The notes under the pieces: model-generated
Databases searched by the model: none
The model's input: only the letters and a program-made list of their open reading frames with translations
Told to the model about the DNA's origin: nothing
Program-made: the position numbers and the translations under genes
DNA from: Rhodanobacter sp. 7MK24
GTDB taxonomy: Bacteria; Pseudomonadota; Gammaproteobacteria; Xanthomonadales; Rhodanobacteraceae
NCBI RefSeq assembly: GCF_014842995.1
Contig: NZ_JACYXL010000003.1
Location: forward strand, 62,001-126,000
Direction: 5' to 3'
Length of the DNA stretch: 64,000 nt
Shown here: in pieces, positions 19,213 to 22,229 of the stretch
Numbering within the stretch: position 1 is the stretch's first letter
Layout: each line of letters starts with the position of its first letter

Positions 19213-19267
19213 CGCGTATCTTCAACGCTTCTGGCAACTTTCGAGTTGCTAGCGAGCTCCTTAGGTC

Positions 19268-19310
19268 TGCCTACGGTTCAAGGCAGACTTTGTCTGTCGG
19301 GCGTTAAAGT
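19268..19310 (+). repeat. Possible degenerate attC relic
   Basis: TGCCTACGGTTCAAGG, a GGCAGAC-TTT-GTCTGTC hairpin and GGGCGTTAAAG follow in the order of an attC site (R'' box, L'' box, stem, R' box). The R'' box has lost a base, the L' box is missing, and the R' box is not canonical. It sits just before the first gene of the possible cassette region. Confidence 0.35.
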
Positions 19311-19388
19311 AAAATTCGGAACAGAGATGCGCCTGTCGCTGATGAGCGTTGGGCGCATCATCGATGTGCGATCGAAGGGAAACGCCTC

Positions 19389-20066
19389 ATGAAAAGAACG
19401 GACATGGGTACGCTGACGCATTCGCGGCGACGGCAATGGGCATGGATGGGCGTCGTGGTCGCGAGCGCCCTGTTGGCGTCGACTGCCGCGTCGCAAGGCA
19501 CAGATGGCGTAGCGAACACCTATTACCCAGGGCCTAACGTCACTTACACGAATGAGGCTCCGTACAAGCTATTGATCACAGTGTCGCGGCCGACGAACGA
19601 CGACGCCGACGACCAATGGTTCGACTTCGTCCGGGCGGTTTTCCAGCGCTACGTATCGCCGACGGTATGGCCGGGCGCGTGGCCCGTGCTGGTCGGCCGC
19701 AGCGAAATGAGTGTGGGTTTGCGCGAGCGCGCAAACAACGTCTTCAAAGACTGGATTGCCGGCCGACGGCTGCAGCCTGGCGCCATCCTGGCCTTGGGCG
19801 GACCAAGCTCACGCGTCACCGCGGACACAATGATCAATAGCTTCAAGCACGCACCGCCAAACTGGGCCAAAGGCGCCACGCTCATGTTCATGGGATCCGC
19901 CGCCGACAAGGATCGCGTCTTCGCGGCACTCCGCCCGAGTGGCGCCACGTTGCGTTTCTTCGATCTAGACAGCGTGCAGGCGGCCACCCTCGAGCGGATC
20001 ATTCCACGTATCAAGGGGCCACTGCCGCCCGTACCGGCGCCACCGCCGCCGCCAAGAACGCATTGA
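19389..20066 (+). CDS. Secreted protein of unknown function
   Basis: 225 residues with a basic N-terminus and hydrophobic segment (WMGVVVASALLASTAASQG) consistent with a signal peptide, then a mixed domain containing WFDFVRAVFQRYVSP, LQPGAILALGGPSS and ATLMFMGSAADKDRVFAALRP, and a proline-rich tail. I do not recognise a family. The gene is preceded by a possible degenerate attC, so it may be an old cassette, but no attC follows it directly. Upstream GGGAAACG is a weak ribosome binding site. Confidence 0.65.
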   Translation: MKRTDMGTLTHSRRRQWAWMGVVVASALLASTAASQGTDGVANTYYPGPNVTYTNEAPYKLLITVSRPTNDDADDQWFDFVRAVFQRYVSPTVWPGAWPVLVGRSEMSVGLRERANNVFKDWIAGRRLQPGAILALGGPSSRVTADTMINSFKHAPPNWAKGATLMFMGSAADKDRVFAALRPSGATLRFFDLDSVQAATLERIIPRIKGPLPPVPAPPPPPRTH

Positions 20067-20434
20067 GCACGAGCGGGGGGCGCGATGCGAGGGCATCAAG
20101 CTTGCCGTAGTCAGGATTCAGAGTGACCTAAAAAACGCCAAATACTCTTTTTGCCCTGGCGTAACCTGCGCAAGAGACCATCTCGCGCCAAGCTGACAGG
20201 GTCAACTTTGGAAAAGTCCGTCCGGACATCCCTGCAGATTGGGACGGATAAGACATGGCACCAGGGAAAAAAGATTGCGTGCTGCGTAACGCACGATGCC
20301 GATACCGGCGCATGGGGTAAAGACTTGATCTCGTGTAGGATTTAGGCGAAGGAAGGGGACGACGGGCGCTGAACATCCCATGCATATTGGCGAATCGAGG
20401 CTTTACTGAGGCGTTAGCCGCAAGGGGGAAAGCC
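20067..20434 (+). other. Gene-free stretch ahead of the cassette array
   Basis: 368 bases, AT-richer than the surroundings. The only long frame is an antisense one with shadow composition. It contains GGGTCAACTTTGG at 20199-20211, related to the dispersed repeats, and ends with GCGTTAGCC at 20411-20419, which looks like the right end (R' box) of an attC or an attI-like junction. No integrase gene or attI was recognised. Confidence 0.5.
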
Positions 20435-20707
20435 ATGAAGCGACTCGGCTTATTGTTTGCGACAGCAGCCACGCTTGTGCTCGCAACCGGATCGGCGCAT
20501 GCCAATTGCGAGGATGGACACTGGGTTCAGTCTGTATCCTCTGACGGCGCTATCGTCGTACTTGAAGACGGCTCCGTATGGGAGATCGACCCAGCTGATC
20601 AAGTCGATACTGCGCTCTGGCTCCCCACCACTAACATAGTCGCGTGTGACGACAAACTCATCGACACAGACGATAACGAGATCGCAGCAGCTACACGCAT
20701 CAAGTGA
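20435..20707 (+). CDS. Cassette gene 1: small secreted protein
   Basis: 90 residues: a signal peptide (KRLGLLFATAATLVLATGSAHA) and a short acidic domain, NCEDGHWVQSVSSDGAIVVLEDGSVWEIDPAD, rich in short beta strands, with two cysteines that could pair. It resembles small secreted unknowns found in cassettes; no function can be given. ATG 20435 follows AAGGGGGAAAGCC, a good ribosome binding site. The gene ends 4 bases before the first attC, so it is clearly the payload of that cassette. Confidence 0.72.
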   Translation: MKRLGLLFATAATLVLATGSAHANCEDGHWVQSVSSDGAIVVLEDGSVWEIDPADQVDTALWLPTTNIVACDDKLIDTDDNEIAAATRIK

Positions 20708-20711
20708 CAGT

Positions 20712-20768
20712 GGCTAACAATTCGTTCAAGGCGGGCGGCTTTGCCGCCGCTTAACTCCTGCGTTAGGC
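20712..20768 (+). other. attC site 1
   Basis: The left box GGCTAAC pairs with the right box GTTAGGC. Internal boxes GTTCAAG and CTTAAC flank the stem GGCGGC-TTT-GCCGCC. The right box matches consensus GTTRRRY; the left box has one mismatch. Recombination is expected after the G of GTTAGGC. Confidence 0.88.
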
Positions 20769-20773
20769 AGCAG

Positions 20774-21253
20774 ATGCGGAACTCCGTAATCTTGATAGTT
20801 CCATTTCTGTTCTTTGTGCCGCCTGCAATGCGGGCGACACCGGAACCGGCATCACCATGCGCATCTTTCCGTGCATTCGCCGCGTCGGTACAGAAAGGTC
20901 AAACCGAGAGCATCGAATTCCACACGTCTTGGCTCGCGGACTTCAAGGATGGCAATCCCAAAGCCATAGGTGCCTTCACGCGGTGTTTCGATCGAGGCTA
21001 TGCACCGGGCCACGCCGTTTGTAGCTACCTTTCAAAAAATGGCGCTGTGGAATTTGCTGGCGACAACGCAAGACAGGCTTTGGCCTGCCTGTTGCCAGGC
21101 ACACGCTTTGGCCAACATGATCTAGCCTTGGAAGCTTTAGACGTTTCTTTTTACTTCGGCACACCGCAGCGTGGCAGCAACATGACCATTCGCTTCGAAT
21201 CTGACCAAAAGATGGGTGGCATGGTCCTCACAATCATTGCGGATGGTTACTAG
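20774..21253 (+). CDS. Cassette gene 2: secreted protein of unknown function
   Basis: 159 residues with a hydrophobic N-terminal signal (NSVILIVPFLFFVPPAMRA) and a domain with four to five Cys (SPCASF, TRCFDRG, AVCSYL, LACLLPG), suggesting a disulfide-stabilised extracytoplasmic fold. No family was recognised. The ATG at 20774 lies only five bases after the attC right box, with AGGCAG as a poor ribosome binding site partly inside attC. The gene ends 10 bases before attC site 2. Codon use is more AT-rich than in the flanking chromosomal genes. Confidence 0.72.
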   Translation: MRNSVILIVPFLFFVPPAMRATPEPASPCASFRAFAASVQKGQTESIEFHTSWLADFKDGNPKAIGAFTRCFDRGYAPGHAVCSYLSKNGAVEFAGDNARQALACLLPGTRFGQHDLALEALDVSFYFGTPQRGSNMTIRFESDQKMGGMVLTIIADGY

Positions 21254-21263
21254 CCATGCTGCT

Positions 21264-21320
21264 GTCTAACAACTCGTCCGAGGCGGACGCCTCCGGTGCC
21301 GCTTAACTCAAGCGTTAGGC
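21264..21320 (+). other. attC site 2
   Basis: GTCTAAC (perfect RYYYAAC) and GTTAGGC (perfect GTTRRRY) bound a 57-base site with internal CTTAAC and the stem GGCGGACGCC-TCC-GGTGCCGC. This is the best of the three sites. Confidence 0.9.
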
Positions 21321-21336
21321 TCCTCACAAGAACTCC

Positions 21337-21906
21337 ATGAGCGATCCGACACTTACCTTTTCAAGTCAAGCAGAGTGGGAGTCCTGGCTTGAGCTCAACG
21401 GAAGCTCCGCAGCGGGCGCCTGGCTTCGCCTGGCAAAAAAAACTGCCGAGCGACCAACGATCTCCTATGCCGAGGCAGTCGAGAGCGCTCTTTGTCACGG
21501 CTGGATTGACGGTCAGAAGAAAGCGGAAAATGAACACCATTGGCTGCAACGATTCACGCCTAGAACAGCAAAAAGCATCTGGTCCAAGATCAACAAGGCA
21601 AAAGCTGAAATCCTAATCACCGCGGGAAGAATGCATCCTACTGGACTGCGCGAGATCGAGCGAGCCAAGCAAGATGGACGCTGGGATGCGGCATATTCAT
21701 CAGCGAGTACATCTATCGTCCCTGACGACTTGCAACAAGCCCTTGAGGCCAATAAAAAGGCTAAGGCATTTTTTGCAACACTAGACAGTCAGAACCGATA
21801 TGCCATTTTGTTCAGGATTCAGAATGTCAAAAAGGCAGAAACCCGCGCCAAAAAAATTGCTGGGTTCATCGAAATGCTGGCCAATGGCAAAAAAATTCAC
21901 CCGTAG
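21337..21906 (+). CDS. Cassette gene 3: YdeI/OmpD-associated family protein
   Basis: 189 residues matching the YdeI (bacteriocin-protection/OmdA) family: LTFSSQAEWESWLELN, the ISYAEAVESALCHGWIDGQKK block, FTPRTAKSIWSKINKAKAE and the Lys-rich end KAETRAKKIAGFIEML. Members are small cytosolic proteins; some are reported to affect envelope-stress or bacteriocin tolerance, with unknown biochemistry. Composition is clearly foreign (several 60-base lines at 40-50% G+C, and poly-A runs). It starts 16 bases after attC site 2 and ends 8 bases before attC site 3. Confidence 0.85.
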   Translation: MSDPTLTFSSQAEWESWLELNGSSAAGAWLRLAKKTAERPTISYAEAVESALCHGWIDGQKKAENEHHWLQRFTPRTAKSIWSKINKAKAEILITAGRMHPTGLREIERAKQDGRWDAAYSSASTSIVPDDLQQALEANKKAKAFFATLDSQNRYAILFRIQNVKKAETRAKKIAGFIEMLANGKKIHP

Positions 21907-21914
21907 CGCCAGTG

Positions 21915-21972
21915 GCCTGACAATGCATTCAAGGTGAACGCCTTCGGCGTCACCTGAACCCCGGCGTTGACC
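21915..21972 (+). other. attC site 3 (diverged)
   Basis: GCCTGAC and GTTGACC bound a 58-base site with TTCAAGGTGAACGCC-TTC-GGCGTCACCTGAA as stem. The boxes show GAC in place of AAC and a C at the third purine position, so the site is diverged but still symmetric. Confidence 0.72.
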
Positions 21973-22229
21973 GTCCGCCCTTGGCCAATTCGAGCCCGCG
22001 TGCCATGCGGATCAGAGTGCCGGCGAGCCGATCATGACCGACAGGTTCAAGTGATCAATTTCATCGGCATGCACAGCAAGAATGTCAGCAAGCCTGTCAA
22101 GGTCCCTGCCGATCCAAAGAGGATGCTGATTGGGAGGCATGGTGTGCAAGATTGCATAGCCAACCGCACGGAAGTGGGCATGATCGACATGGCAGGCATT
22201 GCGTTTCTCACCAAGAGGCAACCAAGCAT
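21973..22229. other. Short unassigned stretch after the last attC
   Basis: 257 bases with open frames on both strands (plus to 22284; minus 22221 to 22012, starting MPLGEKRNACHVDHAHF). Neither has a ribosome binding site or a family I recognise. It could be a decayed cassette or spacer. Confidence 0.35.

What the first reader, a model, noticed from the sequence alone, without database searches (positions are those of the whole stretch)
20411..21972. Integrase-less integron cassette array (CALIN) in a Xanthomonadales-like chromosome
Three attC-like sites (20712-20768, 21264-21320, 21915-21972) with R''/R' and L''/L' boxes alternate with three small plus-strand genes of lower G+C. All genes lie in the sense orientation and end just before the next attC. 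attC architecture is established knowledge. That this is a stranded cluster is inference, because no intI or attI is visible. The payloads (two secreted Cys-containing unknowns and a YdeI-like protein) are candidates for defence, toxin or envelope-stress functions.
Basis: partly seen in the sequence, partly recalled or inferred. Interest (0 to 1): 0.82.

Follow-up and report, generated by a model that had tools for sequence, protein, structure and literature searches.

The report
Integrase-less integron that kept its attI
Three gene cassettes sit at a bacterial gene-capture site that has lost its own enzyme but kept its docking site, and related genomes hold several such docking sites that may be loaded by one enzyme encoded elsewhere.

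Summary
The three attC sites are real. A covariance model built from 21 attCs outside the window scores them 73.3, 72.4 and 30.2 bits; the next hit in 64 kb is 13.6. Window 20206-20413 is homologous to the intI-attI region of a relative's complete integron and keeps the intI start codon and about 12 codons; the rest of intI is gone. An attI model built without the window hits 20329-20416 (38.8 bits, E=1.5e-10). So this is an intI-less integron with attI, not a stray cassette cluster. The only intI found over cut-off is on another contig and its C-terminal end is out of frame. Relative G003 lacks the element between the same two genes.

Nine of 15 genomes of the genus carry, in all, 23 attI hits (32 bits or more) without adjacent intI, up to five per genome. 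At two orthologous intI-less loci both species carry arrays that share no orthologous cassette; at three more the DNA after attI differs. This fits IntI acting in trans; differential loss is not excluded. Activity at the window is untested. No defence or toxin role is supported.

The parts
20206..20413 (+). Leader: former intI-attI intergenic region plus intI 5' tip
   Evidence: Local alignment to G002 leaders; score 197 against shuffle maximum 49, and without the attI part 86 against 37; tree places it with two G002 leaders at 100/99.
20221..20256 (-). Relic of intI: start codon and about 12 codons (MSYPSQSAGMSG against MSYPPPSAGISD in G002, 8 of 12 identical)
   Evidence: beyond about 20204 no intI homology above shuffles.
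20329..20416 (+). attI site, crossover at 20413/20414
   Evidence: Model R2 built without the window: 38.8 bits, E = 1.5e-10.
20414..20762 (+). Cassette 1; gene 20435-20707 (90 aa, no family above cut-off)
   Evidence: relatives in 4 other of 117 family genomes.
20712..20768 (+). attC 1
   Evidence: 73.3 bits, E = 1.5e-16.
20763..21314 (+). Cassette 2; gene 20774-21253 (159 aa, no family)
   Evidence: relatives in 11 other of 117 family genomes.
21264..21320 (+). attC 2
   Evidence: 72.4 bits, E = 2.5e-16.
21315..21966 (+). Cassette 3; gene 21337-21906 (189 aa, YdeI/OmdA family)
   Evidence: PF13376, 80.3 bits against cut-off 25.6.
21915..21971 (+). attC 3, diverged
   Evidence: 30.2 bits, E = 2.1e-5.
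19218..22205 (.). Stretch absent from relative G003 between beta-glucosidase and glyoxalase-like genes (holds ORF 19389-20066, leader, cassettes and a 239-bp tail)
   Evidence: Flank alignments end at 19217 and resume at 22206; 32 bp lie between them in G003.

Best explanation
This is an integron platform whose intI has been removed except for its 5' tip. The leader, the attI site and three cassettes remain. The cassettes were inserted one after another at this attI by an integron integrase, either an intI once present here or one acting from elsewhere. Any further gain or loss now needs an integrase in trans, for which the only candidate found in this genome is the intI on contig C6, whose C-terminal end is out of frame. 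Shown: attC sites, attI, leader and intI tip by homology; no intI nearby; absence of the element in one relative. Inferred: the order of events, loading at this attI, any present activity, and expression from a promoter in the leader.
For: attC model built without the window scores all three sites. attI model built without the window hits 20329-20416. Leader homology to G002 holds even without the attI part (86 against shuffle maximum 37) and the leader tree joins window and G002 at 100/99. The intI start codon and tip remain on the reverse strand. One intI over cut-off in the genome, on C6. Relative G003 has the flanking genes 32 bp apart. Low G+C of leader and cassettes, 54.1% and 51.6-56.1%.
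Against: The attI score is the lowest of the seven. The window leader does not match the genome's own C6 leader above shuffles outside attI (29 against maximum 39), so the remaining intI is not its obvious partner. No sigma-70-like promoter was found in 20180-20460. The third attC is weak. attI function is by homology only.
Confidence: 0.85

Rival explanations
1. Working satellite platform: the array is one of several intI-less attI sites kept in working order and loaded in trans by the single intI of the genome.
For: 23 attI hits without adjacent intI in 9 of 15 genomes. 15 of 22 such loci other than the window have sense attC hits within 2 kb. Two orthologous pairs carry arrays with no orthologous cassette in common, three more differ after attI. 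The attI core (45 nt) is 83-98% identical in seven intI-less comparisons and exceeds the -700 to -200 flank in five of them.
Against: No occupied orthologue of the window locus was found, so turnover here is untested. Own intI is C-terminally altered and its leader is of another type. Differential loss from larger ancestral arrays would give the same contrast. In three of the five pairs one side has no attC hit.
Confidence: 0.3
2. Off-target insertion: cassettes were placed by IntI at a non-attI chromosomal site (attG) and the cluster never had an attI.
For: A published CALIN origin (PMC8618304, passages; attG work cited in PMC12444791, passages). The genome has four isolated attC hits and two clusters without an attI hit.
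Against: attI and 208 bp of leader with the intI tip lie directly upstream of cassette 1.
Confidence: 0.05
3. Chance or repeat: the sites are not attC.
For: Folding is unremarkable; the third site is weak.
Against: 73.3 and 72.4 bits against 13.6 for the next hit, gene-attC alternation in one orientation, matching G|TT boundaries.
Confidence: 0.01

Closest known systems
CALIN (cluster of attC sites lacking an integron integrase)
   Same: Three attC sites, no intI beside them.
   Different: attI, leader and intI tip are retained. IntegronFinder does not detect attI outside class 1 integrons (PMC9024848, passages), so it would be labelled a plain CALIN.
Complete chromosomal integron of relative G002 (L041, L052)
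   Same: Same leader and attI type, 69% identical over 195 columns; same attC type.
   Different: G002 has a full intI and a longer array; here only the tip of intI remains.
Second integron copy of G002 (L044, L053)
   Same: intI truncated, leader, attI and cassettes kept.
   Different: More of intI remains there: homology to G002's intact copy reaches -335 from the attI cut against about -210 in the window.
Xanthomonas integrons and CALINs (PMC12444791, passages seen)
   Same: intI often inactivated; about half of genomes carry CALINs away from the ilvD locus, at relatively conserved positions.
   Different: The passages I saw do not report attI at those CALINs; I did not test them.

Membership tests
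CALIN | two or more attC sites | tested here: met
   Three.
CALIN | no intI nearby | tested here: met
   Only intI over cut-off is on C6; 64-kb window and 593-kb contig C31 without one.
Complete integron | intact intI next to attI | tested here: not met
   Start codon and about 12 codons only.
Complete integron | attI next to the first cassette | tested here: met
   20329-20416, E = 1.5e-10; homology only.
Complete integron | cassette promoter Pc | tested here: inconclusive
   No sigma-70-like match in 20180-20460; the leader is conserved with G002.
attG (off-target) insertion | cassettes at a site that is not attI | tested here: not met
   attI and leader upstream.
Satellite attI platform loaded in trans (proposed here) | cassette turnover at this attI without intI in cis | not tested
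   No occupied orthologous locus was found for the window; shown only for other loci of the genus.
Satellite attI platform loaded in trans (proposed here) | recombination at attI by an IntI from elsewhere | not testable with these tools
   Needs an assay.

The most novel reading that the evidence does not exclude
Hub-and-satellite integrons: in this genus one intI serves several dispersed attI platforms, each with its own leader, so a share of CALINs are not fossils but loading sites worked in trans; the window is one of that set.
Probability: 0.4. Interest if true: 0.8.

Novelty: new variant of a known kind. Interest (0 to 1): 0.58.

Why it matters
[quoted passage not shown] If some keep attI and are loaded in trans, the cassette capacity of a genome is underestimated and one integrase could diversify several loci at once. 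This is directly testable. My searches of the held library for orphan, multiple or intI-less attI listed no paper whose title or abstract start describes this; I opened passages of four papers only, and the library lacks most subscription journals. Loss of intI as an origin of CALINs is itself already proposed (PMC8618304, passages).

Tried and rejected
Stray off-target insertion: rejected because attI and leader lie upstream. A longer intI relic upstream of the leader: not supported; 21, 98, 77 and 106 of 300 shuffles reach the observed score against four references, so the longer weak alignment to G002's second copy is not used. Rfam: no hit. Defence families: no hit. Plasmids: relatives of cassette 3 in 82 records, best 72.5% identity, no close copy. 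Folding of attC strands: weak evidence. Structure of the cassette 2 protein: single-sequence model of low confidence (mean pLDDT 61.9); Foldseek against PDB gave no match with E up to 0.001, so nothing is taken from it. Paper search matched 192 papers, 25 listed, nearly all on 'attitude'.

Corrections made on re-reading: the shared upstream boundary of leaders holds for 12 of 23 loci, not 13 (my note says 13; recounted); the C11 array at 296-300 kb has 8 attC hits, not 9 as in my note; G013:C25 has 7 downstream attC hits.

Full report
Observation. The window is G000:C31:62001-126000, inside a 593-kb contig. The repeat finder gave three copies of a 58-nt unit at 20711, 21263 and 21914. I gathered 21 attC sites outside the window by a motif pattern, aligned them and built covariance model R1 with 12 base pairs. 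R1 scores the window's sites 73.3, 72.4 and 30.2 bits; the fourth hit is 13.6 bits, E = 0.4. In the whole genome R1 finds 27 sites at E up to 0.05: one beside intI at the start of C6, clusters of 4 and 8 on C11, 3 and 3 on C31 (one is the window) and 4 at the end of C37, and four isolated sites (C5, C22, C36, C11:634640). Several lie near contig ends.

The missed attI. A search of the genus with 19389-20410 gave two places in relative G002 that match the 187 bases before cassette 1 at 75 and 72%, besides four weaker hits. One lies between a complete intI and its first cassette. Alignment with intI-linked leaders shows a shared attI ending in GCG|TTA. From ten attI sites, eight next to intI (one a pseudogene) and two not, window excluded, I built a sequence-only model R2. 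In 19 sources of 218 kb it gives seven hits at E up to 1: the window (20329-20416, 38.8 bits, E = 1.5e-10) and six other attIs, five of which are in the training set. Leader homology holds without the attI part against G002 (86 against shuffle maximum 37; 68 against 36 for its second copy) but not against the genome's own C6 leader (29 against 39). A tree of 31 leaders puts the window with the two G002 leaders at 100/99; 13 of its 28 inner branches are open.

State of intI. The reverse strand keeps the intI start codon and a tip that agrees with G002's in 8 of 12 residues; further upstream nothing exceeds shuffles. The only intI over cut-off in the genome is at C6:1750-2655. It ends in other residues after the conserved tyrosine segment, where the four relatives printed to their end share a further stretch. 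This may be real or an assembly error.

Context. In relative G003 the beta-glucosidase and glyoxalase-like genes that flank the window's element are 32 bp apart; here 2988 bp lie between them. ORF 19389-20066 in that stretch has chromosomal G+C (63.3%); it matched no Pfam or NCBIfam family and no held locus other than copies of the window region. The leader and cassettes have 51.6-56.1%.

Genus-wide pattern. R2 in 15 genomes: 10 have a hit at E up to 0.05, 38 rows in all. I dropped seven rows below 32 bits. Of the 31 kept, 8 lie next to an intI (one a pseudogene) and 23 do not, in 9 genomes: G006 and G010 five each, G000 three, G002, G009, G013 and G014 two each, G001 and G004 one each. Two of the 23 were in the training set. 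intI over cut-off was found in 9 of 15 genomes, one locus each; that of G005 is partial and has no attI hit. Against universality: G003 has 17 attC hits but no attI hit and no intI over cut-off, and two clusters of the window's genome (C31:550 kb, C37) have no attI hit. I fetched 20 intI-less loci and already held two more. Of these 22, 15 have sense attC hits within 2 kb of attI, two are cut off by a contig end within 361 bp, and five have none.

Cassette turnover. Pairs of intI-less loci with matching upstream flanks (84-94% identity) were compared downstream of attI. C11:3k against G013:C25 share by DNA only pieces of 45-76 bp at attC positions; by protein, attC-encoded peptides and one pair of 32% over 93 aa among the rows shown. 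C11:300k against G013:C10 share attC pieces and one 287-bp match of 68.6%. In three more pairs the flank resumes at 89-94% identity after different lengths: G014:C26 and G010:1015k (1688 and 971), G006:C13 and G010:1570k (614 and 342), G006:C33 and G010:418k (891 and 2973, after a 78% piece at 666 and 2664). In each of these three, one side (G014:C26, G010:1570k, G006:C33) has no attC hit, so cassette content is shown on one side only. G006:C37 and G006:C5 run into contig ends. Two intI-linked pairs differ in the same way (one shares 65 bp, the other nothing). This fits IntI acting in trans, but differential loss would also fit. The attI core of 45 nt is 83-98% identical in seven intI-less comparisons, which are not all independent, and 96 and 93% in two intI-linked ones; it exceeds the -700 to -200 flank in five of the seven.

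Unexplained. Homology to intI-linked leaders starts at -182 to -201 from the attI cut in 12 of 23 intI-less loci (15 of 23 at -169 to -215, the window at -210). Eight of them, some orthologous, also share a repeat of about 300 bp further upstream. A shared unit of duplication or a shared functional boundary would both explain this.

Family. R2 in 117 genomes of the family: 29 have a hit at E up to 1e-5, 17 of these two or more, 12 of the 17 in other genera. intI was not counted there, so these are not shown to be intI-less.

Payloads. Cassette 3 encodes a YdeI/OmdA protein. A scan of named genomes gave 480 relatives, best 80 kept. I read flanks of 16 of the 80 and scanned 13 with R1. Strong attC hits lie directly upstream in L076 (Rhodanobacter sp. 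C01, 64.8 bits) and L078 (Methylobacillus sp. MM3, 58.5); weak ones in L073 (Rhodanobacter glycinis, 22.4) and L068 (Chitinolyticbacter albus, 21.0). L071 (Geothrix limicola) shows repeats of 14-18 bits, a level also seen inside a gene in L079. The others scanned show no adjacent hit at E up to 1 except a 16-bit antisense one in L075. Cassette 1 has relatives in 4 other of 117 family genomes; one of the four loci (L222) has attC hits of 26 and 61 bits just upstream. Cassette 2 has relatives in 11 others; none of 9 loci scanned has a hit. A low-confidence model of its protein matched nothing. No function beyond YdeI/OmdA membership is assigned.

Literature. Three CALIN origins are proposed: off-target insertion, loss of recognisable intI, rearrangement (PMC8618304, passages). 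attI outside class 1 is not detected by IntegronFinder (PMC9024848, passages). About half of Xanthomonas genomes carry CALINs away from ilvD (PMC12444791, passages). Shewanella CALINs and single sites are in PMC9229058 (passages).

Verdict. Anatomy: intI-less integron with attI, 0.85. The boldest reading left open, a set of satellite platforms worked in trans that includes the window, 0.4; present activity of the window's own attI, 0.3.

Noticed in passing
L001/L054 (G000:C6:1750-2655): The genome's only intI over cut-off ends in other residues after its conserved tyrosine segment, where relatives share a further stretch; real or assembly error unknown.
   Followed up: partly
L010 (G000:C11:1-3146) and L148 (C11:296-301 kb): Two more intI-less attI arrays in the same genome, with 4 and 8 attC hits.
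   Followed up: yes
L149 (G000:C31:549869-551471) and L150 (G000:C37:163284-165178): Two further attC clusters without an attI hit; the second lies at a contig end.
   Followed up: no
L192, L193, L194, L196, L197, L198, L201, L203, about 200-520 bp upstream of attI: Eight intI-less attI loci share a dispersed repeat of about 300 bp just upstream of the leader.
   Followed up: partly
intI-linked leaders and many intI-less ones: By eye, inverted TGCATATC / GATATGCA motifs flank the intI start; the window and G002 leaders lack them.
   Followed up: no
window 19389-20066 (+): 225-aa ORF with chromosomal G+C inside the stretch absent from G003; no Pfam or NCBIfam family.
   Followed up: partly
window 22012-22221 (-): 69-aa ORF in the tail after attC 3; no NCBIfam family and no match in held loci other than window copies.
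   Followed up: partly
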